A stretch of DNA of 48,531 bases from Acidobacteriota bacterium. Its GTDB lineage: Bacteria; Actinomycetota; Acidimicrobiia; Spongiisociales; UBA5794. The notes under the pieces are model-generated. The model had not been told where the DNA came from. It searched no databases and saw nothing but the letters and a program-made list of their open reading frames with translations. The stretch spans positions 1 to 48,531 of the forward strand of contig JADFQA010000024.1 in NCBI GenBank assembly GCA_022562055.1. Direction: 5' to 3'. Of the stretch, positions 13,086-20,671 are shown one piece after another. How positions within the stretch are numbered: position 1 is the first letter of the stretch; every line of letters begins with the position of its first letter. Both the position numbers and the translations under genes were made by a program.

Positions 13086-13811
13086 CTACTTGCCGGATTC
13101 CCACGGCCTCGCAGCGAGTAACGCTGCCGAGCCGAGTACAAGGGCACCGACAACAGCGAATAGCACGACCGCTCCTGTCTCCGTGGACGCCAGCAAGAGT
13201 CTTGAAAAGCCAAACGCGAGACCGGCGATCGTCGTGCCCACAAGGATTGGCCGTCCGATCGCCTGCCCGGTTTCGCGGACAAATCTGGTTCGTGAAAGCG
13301 GGACCGCGGCCCCAGAGAATCCGATGGCGCGTGGGTAGGAGAGGTGGTCGGCGACCATTGCGATCATACCGCCGAGGACTGTCCCGACTATCACGACGAT
13401 AAGTGTCATTTTGAGGATCGGAAGCGTAATGGTCCCGCCGTAGGTGGTGTCGCCGGCGAGCGCGAGGAGTCCGCGAGTGAGGGCAAATCCGAGGACCGCC
13501 CCGAGTAGAGCTCCGATGGCGGCAACATAACGTGCGGGGTAGCGCTCGGACGACGACTCGCCTCTGGTGCCGACTGCGTACCCTGCGGTTGCGATGAGCG
13601 CACCGCCGGCCAAGCCGCTGACGATCGATGCCAGGAAGAACGCTCCCTGGGTGATCGTGATTGTGACTCCACCTTGGGTACCGAGCGGCGCCGAGTCGAT
13701 CGACCCTATGGCAGTAAGGGGGCCAAAGAGTGCCAAGGCGCCGACACCGAACAACGCGCCGGCAACCGCGCCGTAACCCATCGCTCGCATTCCGTTTGAC
13801 TGCACGGTCAC
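13086..13811 (-). CDS. uncharacterised polytopic membrane protein
   Basis: A 241-residue protein with about six hydrophobic segments, among them YGAVAGALFGVGALALFGPL, GAFFLASIVSGLAGGALIA, YVAAIGALLGAVLGFAL and LIVVIVGTVLGGMIAMV. Between helices 4 and 5 there is a soluble loop (HLSYPRAIGFSGAAVPLSRT). I do not recognise the family and see no catalytic or binding motif. The listed start is a GTG; the next GTG at 13805 has GGGAG at better spacing and may be the real start. It is convergent with ctaG, so it need not belong to the oxidase cluster. Confidence 0.7.
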   Translation of the reverse strand: MTVQSNGMRAMGYGAVAGALFGVGALALFGPLTAIGSIDSAPLGTQGGVTITITQGAFFLASIVSGLAGGALIATAGYAVGTRGESSSERYPARYVAAIGALLGAVLGFALTRGLLALAGDTTYGGTITLPILKMTLIVVIVGTVLGGMIAMVADHLSYPRAIGFSGAAVPLSRTRFVRETGQAIGRPILVGTTIAGLAFGFSRLLLASTETGAVVLFAVVGALVLGSAALLAARPWESGK

Positions 13812-13901: not shown

Positions 13902-14876
13902 TTATGTGGGACACGAATCCGGCGAGTAGATGCCACGCACGATACCTTCGGGGGCCGTCGACGTGAGTGGACCCCACAACAGCAGATCACCGGAGCTCTT
14001 CGAGAAGAGTCTGAACACGGTGCCCCCGGTGCTCTCGTCCACGACCTTTTGGAGATCGAACGAGGTGCCATAGATGCTGTCCAGGTCGGACACGCGATCT
14101 GACAACTGGAGGCCGGAAAGCGTTCTCAAGTCCGATCCTGCAGCGTCGCTGGAACCTTGGAACGTGAGGTCGAGGCGGTAGCCGACAAACTTCGCATCGG
14201 ATCCCTCGCCTTGCGCAACCGCCTTGAAAGAACCCCACTGTAGAACTCGTTCGGTTTCTCCTACGCAGACGCCGAGTCCACCGATAGACGCCGTCGGTCC
14301 CGTATCGCTGTCCGGTGCGCCGAGGCTTGAGATCAGGATTCCAAAAGCATCTACCGCCGGAGTACCAAACTTGATTGGCCCAATTCCGTTGGCCTGTAAC
14401 GTGAGGTCGCCGACAGGGATAGGCGTGCCGACCGCGACAAATGGGGCATCGGCGGCCGGCGTTGTTGTGGTCGTCGCACCGTCGGTCGCGCCGTCTGACA
14501 GCGTCGTCGTGGTACTGCTGTCCGTCGGCTCCTGCGACACGTCTCCGGCAGAAGTCGATGTGGTCGTGTCAGCAACAGCGGTGGAGGAGTTGCCACTGGC
14601 GAGTTTTACCGTCGCGAGGCTTAGTGCCACCAACAGCAATCCCACAACGAGGCCGGTCAGGATTGGAGACCGTGGGGGCACCGCAGCCGGAACATCCGCG
14701 TCTTCAAGGTCAAGCACCGGGTCTGCTCCAGTCAGCCCTGCAAGATCGTCGTAGGGGTCGAAGAGCCCGTCGTACAGGTCGTCGGGACCATCATCAACAA
14801 TGTCGCTCATCGGCGCATCACTTTCGTTGCACGCTGGGTTCTCCGCCATCTCGTGGAAGGCGGCCAATGCTCGCAT
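13902..14876 (-). CDS. membrane-anchored protein with a domain shared with the 16879-18264 gene
   Basis: A 324-residue protein with an acidic cytoplasmic N-terminus (VDDGPDDLYDGLFDPYDDL), one membrane helix near residues 72-92 (ILTGLVVGLLLVALSLATV) and a Thr/Ser-rich linker of about 60 residues. A C-terminal extracellular domain begins PIPVGDLTLQANGIGPIKFG and contains SSLGAPDSD, KFVGYRLDLTF, LRTLSGLQL and LLLWGPL, ending in PDSC. This domain aligns block by block with the C-terminus of the other gene. Two Cys (CVGE; PDSC) could form a disulfide. Function unknown. A start at the internal ATG 14810 (MSDIVDDG) is equally possible; none has a clear ribosome binding site. It follows the BY-kinase/LCP fusion and is probably cotranscribed. 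Confidence 0.78.
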   Translation of the reverse strand: MRALAAFHEMAENPACNESDAPMSDIVDDGPDDLYDGLFDPYDDLAGLTGADPVLDLEDADVPAAVPPRSPILTGLVVGLLLVALSLATVKLASGNSSTAVADTTTSTSAGDVSQEPTDSSTTTTLSDGATDGATTTTTPAADAPFVAVGTPIPVGDLTLQANGIGPIKFGTPAVDAFGILISSLGAPDSDTGPTASIGGLGVCVGETERVLQWGSFKAVAQGEGSDAKFVGYRLDLTFQGSSDAAGSDLRTLSGLQLSDRVSDLDSIYGTSFDLQKVVDESTGGTVFRLFSKSSGDLLLWGPLTSTAPEGIVRGIYSPDSCPT

Positions 14877-14912
14877 TGTACGCGGCCGGTGCCAACAAGC
14901 GTGGGCTTTCGG

Positions 14913-16844
14913 TCACGAGAACGTTTTCTCCCGCCGGCCGGGGTATGTTTCGTCGAGGATGTCTTCGAAAGACTTGGTTGGCAAGAGAACAAACTGCACG
15001 TTGCCCTGCGAGTCTTCAGCTCGGTAGTCCTTCACGGGGATCGTGAGCCGATAGATCTCGTCAAGATTGATCGATCTGAACCCCCATGCCAGCGAGACCG
15101 CTTCCGTAAGGCTGAGCTGGTCGTCGAGCACAAATGCGTTCGACATGCTGCGTACGGTTGCCATGAGTTCAGACTGTGAGCTGAAGTTCTTGGCTTTGGC
15201 GAAAAGCGCAAGAATCATTTCTTGTTGGCGCTGGTTTCGAGTGAGATCGGTGACACCGGACATAGTGCGCCAGGTTCCGTTGACGAGTTCTTGCGTTGAG
15301 CGCGAACGCACCCACGCAAGCGCCTGTTTCCCGGTCGCCTGGGTACAGCCTCCGGGGAGATTTAGTTCCGCTTTGCGGTCTCGGACCTGGTACTCGGTGC
15401 AGATCTCGATACCCCCGAGCTGATCGACGATATCCTCGAACCCGTCGAATGTAAAAAGAGCGAAATGATCGACAGGGACGCCCGTAAAGTCTGACACGGT
15501 GAGTGACAGCAGCGTTGGTCCGTTGATCTCATCACGGCAGCCAAAAAACGTTGCGTTTATCCTCGTGAAGTTTTGGCGACAACGGTTGGGAAGATAGAGG
15601 TCCCGCGGCAGCGAGACCATGGCGGGTGTCGACCCATCGTTGGGGAGGAGCAGCAGAACAATCACATCCGCCCGCACCTCGCTCTCATCGGTGCCAACCA
15701 CTAGGAAGGTCGTGAACTCGCTCTGTGGTGCGGGTGGCGAGGTCATGACGGTGATCTCGATTTCGTCTACCTCGGGGAGGATGAACGCGTCTTCTGCGAG
15801 CGGTTCCAATACGCGACGTGCCTCTTCGACGTTGTGGACAGCGGTTCTGCGACCTGCCCACGCTTGGTAGGTTTGGTAGCCGGTGTACCCACCGAAACCA
15901 ACGAGGACCACCAAGAACATTGCAAACGATCTCGCGGCCATGCCTGGCCATGTCACCTTCCCAGACTGTTTTCGAGCAGAGCGAGAGATGAATCCGATGA
16001 CGGGAGCACCGTTGTCGCGATGCGCTGAAACGGCTAACGCAAGCGCATCTGGCGTTGTCTGTTCGTTGATGACGAGGATCGTGCCATCGGCGTGGGCTCC
16101 AATTCCTACACCGACGTGCGACCAGTTCGCCGGCGGAACATCAATAATAATGAGGTCGGTGCCGTCAGCAATCTGGTCCAGCGCTTCGGCAACGGCAGCC
16201 GAGGCCAGCACCGATTCGTCCTCACCGATTTCGCCCGAGGGGATCATGGGTAGCTTCTTGGTCGGGCCAACAGCCCACAGACGCGCAGACCGCGCCAGAT
16301 CGGACTCGCCTCGCGCGAGTTCGGCAAGTCCGGGCGAGATGCCTGTGTGAACGAAGCGAGAGATTCCACGCTGCGACATGTCAGCGTCGACGAGGATGAC
16401 CCGGCGGTCTGCAAGCGTCATCGTGAACGCGAGGTTCATAGCAACCGTCGACGAACCGAGGCCGGGGGAGACACCGGCGATTTGCAGGATCTGTCCGGTG
16501 GTCTTGGCCTCGATGCGTTGTGCGATATCGCGGTATTCGGCAGCGACCGAGCTATCGGGAGCGACGAGTGAAGGGCTTGGCGAATCGGTGTACGCGGAAA
16601 TGTTGCCGAGGTTGACGGTCCCCGAGAGCGGTGCCAGCCTTTTGCGTTGGAAGCGGCGACCGAGTACAAGCCATCCGATTCCCGCAACAATGCCCGCGAT
16701 CGCTCCCACGATGAGGGTGCCGATCGGCGTGTTCCAGCGCGACGTCGCCGCCACGAATAAGGCAAGCGCCGCGACAAGGGGCAGGAGGTTGCGTACCGTG
16801 AAGAACCGATGCAAACGCCTGCGCTTTTTCGATTTGAACCTCAT
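14913..16844 (-). CDS. fusion of ParA/BY-kinase-like domain and LytR-CpsA-Psr domain
   Basis: A 643-residue protein. Two helices (about 20-34 and 40-60) come first, as in Wzz/BY-kinase proteins. A P-loop ATPase-like domain follows: GVSPGLGSSTVAMNLAF (about 124-140) replaces the GxGKST loop and lacks the Lys, although VILVDADMS and LIIIDVPP are kept. A further helix at about 306-323 leads to an extracellular LCP domain (about 378-610) with VVGTDESEVRADVIVLL, SLPRDLYLP, LNLPGGC and ALAWVRSRS, the Arg/Asp residues that bind polyprenyl-pyrophosphate. LCP enzymes transfer glycopolymers from lipid carriers to peptidoglycan or other acceptors. No Tyr-rich tail is seen. Start 16844 avoids overlap with the upstream gene. 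Confidence 0.88.
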   Translation of the reverse strand: MRFKSKKRRRLHRFFTVRNLLPLVAALALFVAATSRWNTPIGTLIVGAIAGIVAGIGWLVLGRRFQRKRLAPLSGTVNLGNISAYTDSPSPSLVAPDSSVAAEYRDIAQRIEAKTTGQILQIAGVSPGLGSSTVAMNLAFTMTLADRRVILVDADMSQRGISRFVHTGISPGLAELARGESDLARSARLWAVGPTKKLPMIPSGEIGEDESVLASAAVAEALDQIADGTDLIIIDVPPANWSHVGVGIGAHADGTILVINEQTTPDALALAVSAHRDNGAPVIGFISRSARKQSGKVTWPGMAARSFAMFLVVLVGFGGYTGYQTYQAWAGRRTAVHNVEEARRVLEPLAEDAFILPEVDEIEITVMTSPPAPQSEFTTFLVVGTDESEVRADVIVLLLLPNDGSTPAMVSLPRDLYLPNRCRQNFTRINATFFGCRDEINGPTLLSLTVSDFTGVPVDHFALFTFDGFEDIVDQLGGIEICTEYQVRDRKAELNLPGGCTQATGKQALAWVRSRSTQELVNGTWRTMSGVTDLTRNQRQQEMILALFAKAKNFSSQSELMATVRSMSNAFVLDDQLSLTEAVSLAWGFRSINLDEIYRLTIPVKDYRAEDSQGNVQFVLLPTKSFEDILDETYPGRREKTFS

Positions 16845-16878
16845 GTTGATTTGGTCTTCATGTTTGTTTCTGTCTTCA

Positions 16879-18264
16879 TCAACCGCACGCATCCGGCGCG
16901 AAGATCCCAAGAATTGCACCGTCGTTGGAGGCAAGGGATATCGGTCCGTACAGCAACAGCCGTTTTGTGTCCGATCTCAGCAATCGGAAGAAGGGTTGGC
17001 CGTCGCGATCGAACACTTCAACGACGGAGTTTGCGTAGACGAATCGCAGCGTTTCCACCGTGTCTCCAAGCGCCACCCCTGACAGCGTCTTCAGCGATGC
17101 CCCCGCATCAGTTTCGTCGATTCCGGTGGTGTCGCCGACTCGATATCCGACGAATCTTGAGACATCGTTTTGCACTCTGAATATCGCGGCGATACCGCCC
17201 CACGTCACAACGGTGCCGACGTCAGTTTCGCACAACCCCCAATTTGTGTCGGCCGGTCCTAAGGCGTCCGGCTGGCCGAGGGTGGCAGTGAGGCGGCCGA
17301 GAACTTGGTCCCCGTCTGACCCGAAAGAGAAGGGTCCAAACGCAAACCCGCCCATGGTCAGGTCGGCGAGATTCAAGGGTGATCCGATGGCGGCTATCGG
17401 AACGAGCGTTGCGGTAGTTGTGGTGCTCGTCGTAGTGGAAGATGTGGTTGTGGAGGACGTGGTCGATGTCGTGGTGGTTGGTTGCGCTGTGGTTGATGGA
17501 GCTTGGGTTGCGGTCGTCTGGGCGACGACGATTGTCGTTGGGGGTGACGTGTCAGTGCCCTGGAACCACGAGAGCCATGCGATGATCGCCAGCGCCGCGG
17601 CGGCGAGAAGACCGAGGGGGAGACGCAGGTTGGAGTCCTTGCGCTCGTACATCGACCGGACGGGTGTCATTGTGACATCGGCCGCGACGCTGGACGACGT
17701 TACGGTTTCGGACATCTCTGCGTCGCTCTCGTCGAAGTCCTCCTCCTCTTCTTGTTCATTGAGTTCGTCGAAGTCTGGTCCTGCTTCTTCCAATGCTTCG
17801 TCTTCGTCCCCGGCGTCGTCGAAATCTTTGTCTCCGTCTATCTCGTCGGAGTCCTGCTCTTCCTCATCCTCGAAATCGTCGTCCTCCACCTCAGAGTCGT
17901 CAAGGTCGTCTTCTTCGACGTCAGCTTCGTTTCCCATGCTGAAATCGCTATCTATGTCCTCTTCTTCCTCTTCATCAAACGCGTCGACACCGATGTCGCC
18001 GTCTCCCCAGGGACCCGCGTCGGTGTCGGTGTCGGCGAGGGTGGCCTCGGCTGGAGATTCTAAAGAACCGCGCTCGTCAGAGACGCTGTCTGGCGCCGCG
18101 TCGTCGATCAGTTCCTCGTCTATGTTGTGGAGATCGACCTGCTCTGGTGGTGGTGGCGTGACGTGTTCGTCGATCCACGCCTCGCCGCACGAAGGACACA
18201 CGGCGTCGTCAGGGCTCCTGAGAGAACCGCAATAAATACACGGTGTTTGGATGTCGTCAACCAC
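16879..18264 (-). CDS. zinc-ribbon, acidic, membrane-anchored protein with shared extracellular domain
   Basis: A 461-residue protein with four parts. Cys9, Cys12, Cys23 and Cys26 form a zinc ribbon (PCIYCGS; AVCPSCGEAW). A roughly 130-residue segment is extremely rich in Asp and Glu (for example DAFDEEEEEDIDSDF). One membrane helix (LGLLAAAALAIIAWLSWF) is followed by a Thr/Ser-rich linker. The extracellular domain of about 165 residues starts IGSPLNLADLTMGGFAFGPF and has TLGQPDA, RFVGYRVG, LKTLSGVAL and LLLYGPI, ending APDACG. That domain matches the protein at 13902-14876. The GTG at 18264 is chosen because the zinc ribbon starts there and the preceding codons overlap the upstream gene. Function unknown; the cytoplasmic ribbon plus acidic tract suggests protein or cation binding. 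Confidence 0.8.
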   Translation of the reverse strand: MVDDIQTPCIYCGSLRSPDDAVCPSCGEAWIDEHVTPPPPEQVDLHNIDEELIDDAAPDSVSDERGSLESPAEATLADTDTDAGPWGDGDIGVDAFDEEEEEDIDSDFSMGNEADVEEDDLDDSEVEDDDFEDEEEQDSDEIDGDKDFDDAGDEDEALEEAGPDFDELNEQEEEEDFDESDAEMSETVTSSSVAADVTMTPVRSMYERKDSNLRLPLGLLAAAALAIIAWLSWFQGTDTSPPTTIVVAQTTATQAPSTTAQPTTTTSTTSSTTTSSTTTSTTTTATLVPIAAIGSPLNLADLTMGGFAFGPFSFGSDGDQVLGRLTATLGQPDALGPADTNWGLCETDVGTVVTWGGIAAIFRVQNDVSRFVGYRVGDTTGIDETDAGASLKTLSGVALGDTVETLRFVYANSVVEVFDRDGQPFFRLLRSDTKRLLLYGPISLASNDGAILGIFAPDACG

Positions 18265-18292: not shown

Positions 18293-20311
18293 CTATTCGC
18301 TTGCTTTCGGCGAAGCGGCGGCAAGTACCTTGTGCAGCGCCTGCGCGCTGTCGACGGGTAGTTCGCAAACGAAGTCGTAGCATAGATAGCCGAGCGCCAA
18401 GTCTGGAGGCGGCATGCGGTCGGCAAACAGCTCTAGTTGAGACTCCTGCGACGTCGCTGCAATCACAATCCAAGGCCTGAAATCGCTAAGCACGCTCGAC
18501 AACATCTCGCTCACTCCATGGTGGTCGCCAACTAGCGCGAGTTGTGCGGGGTTGTCGCCGGAGCCCACCATGATGGCCATTGCACCGGCGGCGGCAGTCG
18601 GATAGTCGGCCATGATCGACCCGAGTGTCCTTCGCACCCCGGCAAGTGCCTCTGCGTATCGAGGCCTTCCGGTGAGGGCGTACGCGGTGGTTATTGCGTC
18701 GAGTGCCAGCGTCTGAGGCGAAGGGGTTGGATTGTCGAACAGCGGCTTTTGTCTGACGATAAGGTCCTCGCCATCGTGTGCGGTTCGGTAGACGCCCCCG
18801 TGCGGGTCGACGAATCGATCGATAAGTTCGTCAACAGCCTCAAGCCCACTGTCGTAGTACGCCGGGTTGTGGGTGGCGAGAGCCACGGCGAATAGCCCAC
18901 CCGCATAGGCCCCGAAGTCTTCTGCGAAAGCTGGGCCTGATGTCCGGCCTCCACGTGCCGAACGCTGGAGGGAGCCGGCGACTGTGAGATGGTCCCGAAT
19001 AAATGTACAAATTGACTCTGCAGCATCGACGTATTTTCTCTCGCCGAACGCTGCCCCCGCCTGCGCAAGAGACCGCATTGCAAGACAATTCCACTCTGTG
19101 ACAATTTTGTCATCGACACCTGGTCTTACCCGCTTATCGCGTGCTTCTTTCAACGTGGCCCTCAGGGAGCTGACCTCCTTGGGGTCCTCGGCCGGCATGC
19201 CGTGTGGAAGATAGAGATGGTTCATGCCTTCGAAATTGCCGCCATCTGTAACGCCGAACCACGTGCGCGACAAATCGAGTTCCGGGTCGCTGAGCAGTAG
19301 CCGAAGTTCTTCAATGCTCCACAACGCGAATCGGCCTTCGACGCCCTGCGCATCCGCATCTTCCGACGACCAGAGGGCGCCGCTGGGGTCCCTCAGGTCT
19401 GTCAGCATGTAGTCAAGAGTGTCCGTGCAGACTCGGCGGAACACCTCATCCCCGGTCAACTGCCACCCTGCGAGGTAGATCTTCGCGAGCAGCGCGTTGT
19501 CGTACAGCATTTTCTCGAAGTGGGGGATACGCCATTGTGCGTCCACGGAGTAGCGGGCGAACCCACCGTCGATGTGATCGTTGAGACCGCTTGCAGCCAT
19601 GGTGTGCAAGGTTGTTGACAGCATCGACATCGCCTGTGAGCTGGTTTTCGTGCCATCCGTGGCCGCGATCGCTGCGAGCAGATCGAGCATCGGCACCTGG
19701 GGGAACTTGGGGGCGCCACCAAACCCGCCGTTCGTGTTGTCGAACCGTTGGACGAGGATGTCCATCAGCGCGACGGTGTCCACCGCCGAATCGTCGATCG
19801 CTGTCGGTGGAGGTTGGATCTGTAGAGCTTTCACAAGCTTTCCTGCTTGCTCATTGACCGCCGGGCGGTTTTCCGTCCACATGTGGTACGTTGCGTCGAG
19901 GACTCGTCTGAAAGACGGGTGACCGGGTCGGTCCGTGGGCGGGAAGTACGTGCCGGCGAAAAAGGGCCGTCCGTCGGTGTCGAGGAACATGGTCATCGGC
20001 CAGCCGCCGTGCCCGCTCATCGCTTGGAGCGCCTCCATATAGATTCCATCGATGTCGGGTCGTTCTTCTCGGTCGACTTTGATGTTGACAAAGTTCTTGT
20101 TCATCAGGGCCGCTGTCGATGCGTTCTCGAAGCTTTCATGTGCCATGACGTGACACCAGTGGCAGGCCGCGTAACCAACTGAAAGAAGAACCGGCACGTC
20201 GCGTGCACGAGCTTCGTCAAACGCATCTTCGCCCCACTCGAACCAATCGACCGGGTTGTCCTTGTGCTGTCGCAGATACGGCGATGTAGCGTTTGCGAGT
20301 CGATTGCTCAT
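18293..20311 (-). CDS. YyaL/SPATA20-family protein (thioredoxin-like plus alpha/alpha barrel)
   Basis: A 672-residue cytoplasmic protein. The N-terminal thioredoxin-like DUF255 domain begins SNRLANATSPYLRQHKDNPV and has the CHWC motif in VGYAACHWCHVMAHESF, then KVDREERPDIDGIYM and GHGGWPMTMFLD. The remainder is an (alpha/alpha)6 barrel resembling glycan epimerases or cellobiose epimerases (GGFARYSVDAQWRIPHFEKM; YDNALLAKIY; TEWNCLAMRSLAQA). The family is very widespread, yet its reaction is not established. Length agrees with homologues. The start at 20311 is set by the conserved MSNRLAN-like opening. It is 28 bases upstream of the zinc-ribbon gene and may be cotranscribed with it. Confidence 0.92.
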   Translation of the reverse strand: MSNRLANATSPYLRQHKDNPVDWFEWGEDAFDEARARDVPVLLSVGYAACHWCHVMAHESFENASTAALMNKNFVNIKVDREERPDIDGIYMEALQAMSGHGGWPMTMFLDTDGRPFFAGTYFPPTDRPGHPSFRRVLDATYHMWTENRPAVNEQAGKLVKALQIQPPPTAIDDSAVDTVALMDILVQRFDNTNGGFGGAPKFPQVPMLDLLAAIAATDGTKTSSQAMSMLSTTLHTMAASGLNDHIDGGFARYSVDAQWRIPHFEKMLYDNALLAKIYLAGWQLTGDEVFRRVCTDTLDYMLTDLRDPSGALWSSEDADAQGVEGRFALWSIEELRLLLSDPELDLSRTWFGVTDGGNFEGMNHLYLPHGMPAEDPKEVSSLRATLKEARDKRVRPGVDDKIVTEWNCLAMRSLAQAGAAFGERKYVDAAESICTFIRDHLTVAGSLQRSARGGRTSGPAFAEDFGAYAGGLFAVALATHNPAYYDSGLEAVDELIDRFVDPHGGVYRTAHDGEDLIVRQKPLFDNPTPSPQTLALDAITTAYALTGRPRYAEALAGVRRTLGSIMADYPTAAAGAMAIMVGSGDNPAQLALVGDHHGVSEMLSSVLSDFRPWIVIAATSQESQLELFADRMPPPDLALGYLCYDFVCELPVDSAQALHKVLAAASPKASE

Positions 20312-20671
20312 GGAAGCCAATGTAGCCGCAACCAGGGTCGGGCCATACGGTGGCTTGCAGCCCTTGCCGCACTCGCATTCCGAGCGGACGTTGCGACCAC
20401 GCGGGCTGGTCAATTCAGGTGATCCGGGACCGCATCCGCGTTAACTCAGCGTCGTATTGGCGGGGTCGCCGGCCAATAGTGGACAAATCTCGCAAAGTTG
20501 TGAGAAAAAGGGGTTCACAAAACGCCAAGACTGTGAAATAGTAGGGACGAACAGCGGCTTGTGAATAGTTTCACAAACTCGGGCTTGGTCTTAAGGTGAC
20601 GGACGAGACGGGTGATGCGCAACTTGTCGGCGGCGAGCTGTTGATACATCCCTCTGCGTTGGAGGCTTACC
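20312..20671 (+). promoter_or_regulatory. upstream region of the sigma factor gene with repeated TTGTGA/TTCACAA motifs
   Basis: This 360-base gap separates the divergent YyaL-like and sigma factor genes. Between 20499 and 20576 it has five copies of a TTGTGA-like element in both orientations: TTGTGAG (20499), TTCACAA (20514), CTGTGAA (20531), TTGTGAA (20559) and TTCACAA (20570). The stretch is more AT-rich than its surroundings. I cannot place the -10 and -35 elements with confidence. No further gene is seen. Confidence 0.55.
20559..20576. promoter_or_regulatory. perfect CRP/FNR-type operator palindrome
   Basis: TTGTGAA-TAGT-TTCACAA is a perfect inverted repeat containing TGTGA-N6-TCACA (20560-20575), the consensus of CRP-family regulators including actinobacterial Crp/GlxR. 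It lies about 96 bases before the sigma factor start codon. The match is directly visible; the identity of the regulator is inference. Confidence 0.65.

What the first reader, a model, noticed from the sequence alone, without database searches (positions are those of the whole stretch)
13902..18264. Envelope locus: one ParA/BY-kinase-LCP fusion flanked by two proteins sharing an unnamed extracellular domain
Three co-oriented genes with short gaps. The outer two differ in their cytoplasmic parts (zinc ribbon plus acidic tract versus acidic only). Both have one membrane helix, a Thr/Ser-rich stalk and the same C-terminal domain of about 160 residues (blocks DLT...GP..FG, LG.PD, FVGYR, L.TLSG, LLL.GP, PD.C). 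The middle gene combines a degenerate chain-length or kinase-like ATPase with an LCP glycopolymer transferase. Together they look like a dedicated surface-polymer attachment module with paired anchored partners. I know no described system with this layout.
Basis: partly seen in the sequence, partly recalled or inferred. Interest (0 to 1): 0.65.

Follow-up and report, generated by a model that had tools for sequence, protein, structure and literature searches.

The report
Pseudokinase-fused wall-polymer ligase with paired partners
In a family of uncultured Acidimicrobiia, an enzyme of the kind that attaches sugar polymers to the cell wall is fused to an apparently dead kinase and encoded between two anchored sister proteins that share an uncatalogued outer domain, a conserved layout not found described in the open-access papers searched.

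Summary
On the minus strand the order is C (16879-18264), B (14913-16844), A (13902-about 14810). B is a membrane BY-kinase-like domain fused to an LCP glycopolymer transferase. The C-terminal domains of A and C are homologous (34% identity, E 3e-28), match no Pfam or NCBIfam family, and give a 96-pLDDT model closest to YfeY and, more weakly, BLIP.

C-B-A lies on one contig in 32 of the 50 family genomes held. The exceptions are mostly contig breaks. The P-loop lysine is absent from all 21 B orthologues examined, while BY-kinase-like paralogues in the same genomes keep it. The aligned LCP catalytic residues are intact. I read B as an LCP transferase with a built-in pseudokinase. A and C are ancient paralogues.

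Not in the finding: a co-oriented six-helix protein D (13086-13811) follows A in two families. Some relatives have LCP plus one partner, or a partner with no LCP beside it, so the shared domain is not LCP-specific. In one genus a C-type copy is fused to a REC-GGDEF-GT2 glycosyltransferase, an independent link to glycan synthesis. Function is inferred; the substrate is unknown. Verdict: new variant of a known kind.

The parts
16879..18264 (-). Gene C: zinc ribbon, acidic cytosolic tract, one membrane helix, Thr-rich stalk, shared C-terminal domain
   Evidence: translation; Zn_ribbon_3 E 0.0022, below the curated cut-off; C-type conservation
18172..18240 (-). Zinc ribbon and WID motif of C (CIYCG...CPSCGEAWID)
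   Evidence: conserved in C-type relatives
17572..17628 (-). Membrane helix of C (residues 213-231)
   Evidence: hydropathy
16885..17403 (-). Shared extracellular domain, copy in C
14913..16844 (-). Gene B: two-helix hairpin, BY-kinase-like domain, third helix, LCP transferase domain
15969..16499 (-). BY-kinase-like domain of B (residues 116-292)
   Evidence: Wzc 3la6 E 1.4e-16; fold match
16446..16466 (-). P-loop PGLGSST without the Walker A lysine (Ser131 in its place)
   Evidence: 0 of 21 orthologues have Lys; paralogues keep it
15888..15944 (-). Third membrane helix of B (residues 301-319), joins pseudokinase to LCP domain
   Evidence: hydropathy; helix 299-332 in a low-confidence model
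14940..15716 (-). LCP domain of B (residues 377-635), catalytic motifs kept
13902..14810 (-). Gene A: short acidic cytosolic part, one membrane helix, Thr/Ser-rich stalk, shared C-terminal domain
   Evidence: start codon chosen by comparison with relatives
13911..14447 (-). Shared extracellular domain, copy in A
   Evidence: model pLDDT 96.3
13086..13811 (-). Gene D: protein with six predicted membrane helices, conserved directly downstream of A in families f1 and f8
   Evidence: no Pfam family
18293..20413 (-). Upstream neighbour: DUF255/thioredoxin-like protein, often syntenic, probably not part of the function

Best explanation
The locus most likely encodes a membrane complex that attaches a lipid-linked glycopolymer to the cell wall. 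B's extracellular LCP domain is the transferase. Its cytosolic domain is a BY pseudokinase that cannot phosphorylate; it acts as a scaffold or allosteric input across the membrane, taking the place of the separate kinase (CapB/CpsD) that works near LCP enzymes in Firmicutes. C and A are single-pass partners whose shared outer domains, on flexible stalks, dock on the LCP domain or hold its substrate, while their different cytosolic parts connect to different inner partners. D, with six predicted helices, is probably a membrane component. Shown: domain content, loss of the P-loop lysine, intact LCP motifs, conserved gene order, homology of A and C, model of the shared domain. Inferred: physical complex, transferase reaction, substrate, direction of signalling.
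For: LCP domain by sequence and fold. The motifs aligned to Cps2A D234/D246/R267/R362/D371/R374/Q378 (listed in PMC7831098) are invariant in 8 fused B proteins (mapping by motif). P-loop Lys replaced by Ala/Ser/Thr in 20 of 21 orthologues and the loop degenerate in the other, while paralogues in the same genomes read GKS/GKT. C-B-A on one contig in 32 of 50 f1 genomes (my count). A- and C-type domains form separate supported groups. LCP plus A-type protein without the ATPase in family f8. A C-type zinc-ribbon/domain unit fused to REC-GGDEF-GT2 in genus g12. Precedents: CapA1 enhances LcpC transfer (PMC6441080), EcpK BY pseudokinase as scaffold (PMC12004946), VirR interacts with Lcp1 (PMC11832169).
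Against: No interaction, activity or substrate data. The locus has no glycan-synthesis genes beside it; neighbours are cytochrome oxidase, DUF255 and a sigma factor. The shared domain occurs with no LCP beside it in f7, G019 and many lone proteins, so LCP contact need not be its role. Walker A' Asp residues are kept in 21 of 21 and Walker B Asp in 18 of 21, so nucleotide binding is not excluded. G015 has the ATPase but no LCP between A and C.
Confidence: 0.5

Rival explanations
1. The shared domain is a general extracellular ligand-binding or structural module, for example glycan or peptidoglycan binding. A and C are envelope sensors that happen to be co-transcribed with B.
For: The domain is found in 99 of 296 sampled class genomes, mostly as lone secreted or lipoprotein-like proteins; f7 has DUF255 plus C only.
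Against: A and C flank B in nearly all f1 genomes with an unbroken locus, and the two domain types stay distinct.
Confidence: 0.3
2. The cytosolic domain still binds nucleotide and acts as a switch without the canonical lysine, as a degenerate ParA/MinD-type membrane localiser rather than a dead kinase.
For: Glycines of the P-loop, Walker A' DxD and most Walker B Asp residues are kept; ParA/MinD-like models also match.
Against: The conserved Walker A lysine is absent from all 21 orthologues; the best solved relatives are Wzc/BceF/CapB kinases.
Confidence: 0.2
3. The module positions an LCP transferase at sites of growth and ligates teichoic-acid-like or arabinogalactan-like polymer as housekeeping, independent of capsule. 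This is compatible with the best explanation and differs in the substrate.
For: Core-genome synteny next to a sigma factor gene and cytochrome oxidase in many genera; no adjacent glycan cluster.
Against: No direct evidence of localisation or substrate; other LCP genes exist in the genome (5 matches).
Confidence: 0.3

Closest known systems
Staphylococcus aureus CapA/CapB kinase complex with LcpC (PMC6441080)
   Same: BY-kinase system functionally coupled to an LCP transferase; the membrane partner CapA1 enhances LCP transfer
   Different: Separate proteins; CapA has a Wzz-type ectodomain, absent here; here the kinase domain is fused to the LCP and lacks the catalytic Lys
BY pseudokinases EcpK/EpsV (Myxococcus xanthus) and HfsB/HfsA (Caulobacter) (PMC12004946)
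   Same: BY-kinase fold lacking catalytic features in polysaccharide pathways, proposed scaffold
   Different: Partner is a Wzz-type co-polymerase, not an LCP; EcpK lacks all three Walker motifs, here Walker A' and mostly B remain
VirR and Cei, LytR_C-only partners of Lcp1 in Mycobacterium tuberculosis (PMC11832169, PMC7831098)
   Same: Single-helix accessory protein with an extracytoplasmic domain; interacts with LCP enzymes
   Different: The domain there is LytR_C; no member of the domain family here matches LytR_C
YfeY (2qzb) and BLIP-type folds
   Same: YfeY Z 9.5 over 129 residues; partial BLIP match Z 5.5
   Different: No detectable sequence similarity; no Foldseek match with E under 0.001

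Membership tests
LCP (LytR-CpsA-Psr) glycopolymer transferase | LCP domain above curated cut-off | tested here: met
   PF03816 99.4 bits vs 24.6; TIGR00350 84.6 vs 62.3; fold match TagV E 1.9e-17
LCP (LytR-CpsA-Psr) glycopolymer transferase | Conserved catalytic Asp/Arg/Gln residues | tested here: met
   D386, D393, R414, R513, D533, R536, Q540 invariant in alignment A4; assignment to Cps2A numbering by motif
LCP (LytR-CpsA-Psr) glycopolymer transferase | Transfers polyprenyl-linked glycan to the wall | not testable with these tools
   needs biochemistry
BY-kinase | Walker A lysine | tested here: not met
   0 of 21 orthologues; paralogues keep GKT/GKS
BY-kinase | C-terminal tyrosine cluster | tested here: not met
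   The window domain runs into a membrane helix with no cytosolic Tyr cluster; the tail of the one split ATPase protein printed has no Tyr (L185)
BY-kinase | Walker A' and Walker B aspartates | tested here: met
   Walker A' D.D in 21 of 21; Walker B Asp in 18 of 21
Polysaccharide co-polymerase type 2 (Wzz ectodomain plus kinase) | Wzz periplasmic domain between two helices | tested here: not met
   Only about 11 residues separate the two predicted hydrophobic segments; no Wzz match
LytR_C-only accessory proteins | LytR_C domain | tested here: not met
   No LytR_C match among 40 domain members at E up to 5; sequence test only
BLIP/YfeY-like fold | Two alpha-beta-beta-beta repeats, superposition on a solved member | tested here: inconclusive
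   YfeY Z 9.5, rmsd 3.6 over 129; BLIP Z 5.5 over 64; Foldseek best prob 0.82 for YfeY, E 0.086

The most novel reading that the evidence does not exclude
A phosphorylation-independent transmembrane control unit for wall glycopolymer attachment: a pseudokinase replaces the kinase and co-polymerase pair and passes a cytosolic signal straight to the LCP ligase, while two paralogous stalked domains act as opposing regulators or substrate holders.
Probability: 0.22. Interest if true: 0.72.

Novelty: new variant of a known kind. Interest (0 to 1): 0.52.

Why it matters
How the cytoplasm controls glycopolymer attachment outside the membrane is open. A natural fusion of an LCP ligase with a BY pseudokinase links the two directly and gives a single protein on which that coupling can be tested. 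It also gives an anchor for an uncatalogued extracellular domain family common in Acidimicrobiia; my literature searches combining Acidimicrobiia with LCP or with cell-wall glycopolymers returned no papers.

Tried and rejected
LytR_C identity of the shared domain: no sequence match. PDB sequence relatives of the domain: only weak matches with E 0.27 or worse, none convincing. First profile scan of genome contigs with the diverse alignment failed for lack of conserved blocks; a narrower set worked. Profile self-comparison of the two halves of the domain gave only weak support for an internal repeat (local E 0.019). BY-kinase activity rejected on the P-loop lysine and the missing Tyr tail. Phage origin: no match in phages. 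The B model has low confidence (pLDDT 64.9, 8 sequences) and serves only to support domain assignment. No described kinase-LCP fusion was found (open-access papers only). Among 396 genomes sampled across the phylum the full-length ATPase-LCP match occurred only in f1.

Full report
What is there. On the minus strand of 13902-18264 lie C, B and A in transcription order, with gaps of 34 bases (C-B) and about 100 (B-A, if A starts at 14810). A DUF255 protein lies 28 bases upstream of C, and a protein with six predicted membrane helices, D (13086-13811), lies 90 bases downstream of A, all co-oriented.

B. B has two N-terminal hydrophobic segments separated by about 11 residues, a BY-kinase-like domain, a third segment and a C-terminal LCP domain. 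The nearest solved relatives are the Wzc kinase domain and the LCP enzymes TagT/TagV/Cps2A, by sequence and by fold of a low-confidence model. There is no Wzz ectodomain. The Walker A lysine is Ala, Ser or Thr in 20 of 21 orthologues and the loop is degenerate in the other. Walker A' DxD is kept in all and Walker B Asp in 18. BY-kinase-like paralogues in the same genomes keep the lysine, so the loss belongs to this lineage. The LCP motifs are invariant in the eight fused proteins aligned and kept in the others. Their roles follow Cps2A as reviewed in PMC7831098.

A and C. Their C-terminal domains are homologous (E 3e-28), with two invariant cysteines, and match no Pfam or NCBIfam model. AlphaFold2 with 27 sequences gives pLDDT 96.3 and two successive helix-plus-strands units. 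The best structural match is YfeY (Z 9.5 over 129 residues), then two secreted SCP-domain proteins (about 7) and BLIP (5.5, partial). I take a YfeY/BLIP-like fold as likely, not proven. The conserved cytosolic part of C is a zinc ribbon followed by WID; that of A is an acidic segment ending in PPRSPLLTG or a close variant. The tree separates an A group (95/84) from a group holding all C types, the f7 proteins and the glycosyltransferase fusions (97/90).

Conservation. Among the 50 genomes of the family (20 genera), A-B-C lies on one contig in 32: 29 with fused B, 3 (G009, G026, G040) with adjacent separate ATPase and LCP genes (my count). Most of the others end at contig edges; G019 has only C and no locus was found in G024. 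Family f8 has DUF255-LCP-A, without the ATPase, and in some members the LCP lies elsewhere. Family f7 has DUF255-C with no LCP beside it. D follows A in f1 and f8 and was not found in the f7 loci examined. Named relatives are Acidimicrobiia and other actinobacterial metagenome assemblies. In a sample of 396 genomes of the phylum, a match covering both halves of B occurred only in f1, while the shared domain is in 23 of 396 and in 99 of 296 of the class.

A further clue. In genus g12 a C-type unit (zinc ribbon, helix, stalk, domain) is fused to a response regulator-GGDEF-GT2 glycosyltransferase in two genomes; in a third the domain ORF directly follows the GT2 ORF, and in a fourth the GT2 gene reaches a contig end. 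This ties the C-type protein to glycan synthesis independently of the LCP.

Mechanism. The best reading is an LCP transferase with a built-in pseudokinase and two stalked partners. Three published precedents support the parts: CapA1 enhances LcpC transfer (PMC6441080), EcpK is a BY pseudokinase proposed as a scaffold (PMC12004946), and VirR interacts with Lcp1 (PMC11832169). Because the domain also occurs with no LCP beside it, a general glycan-binding or sensing role remains a serious rival. The syntenic position beside a sigma factor gene and cytochrome oxidase, with no glycan cluster, suggests a core envelope function rather than a variable capsule; this is inference.

Novelty. LCP enzymes, BY pseudokinases and LCP partner proteins are all known. 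The direct pseudokinase-LCP fusion, its three- to four-gene arrangement and the domain family were not found in the literature searched, which holds open-access papers only.

Noticed in passing
window 13086-13811: Protein D with six predicted membrane helices, conserved directly downstream of A in families f1 and f8, with no Pfam match.
   Followed up: partly
L153:6600-9953 and L154:2945-6382: Response regulator-GGDEF-GT2 glycosyltransferase fused to zinc ribbon, helix, stalk and the shared domain; seen only in genus g12.
   Followed up: yes
L156:4559-6124, L157:4161-5714, L158:4451-5935: The shared domain follows a cytosolic part that looks Hsp70/actin-like by eye (L156 has no Pfam match), a membrane helix and a Thr stalk, in other families of the class.
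   Followed up: no
L170:4062-10000: Two large secreted-looking proteins with the shared domain at the C-terminus lie divergent to a different LCP gene.
   Followed up: no
L072:5249-5929 (G026): The ATPase and LCP genes are separate and the genome search reports a TAG inside the ATPase match; could be decay or an assembly error.
   Followed up: no
window 18293-20413: DUF255/thioredoxin-like protein beside the locus in families f1, f7 and f8; linkage to C or to LCP unexplained.
   Followed up: partly
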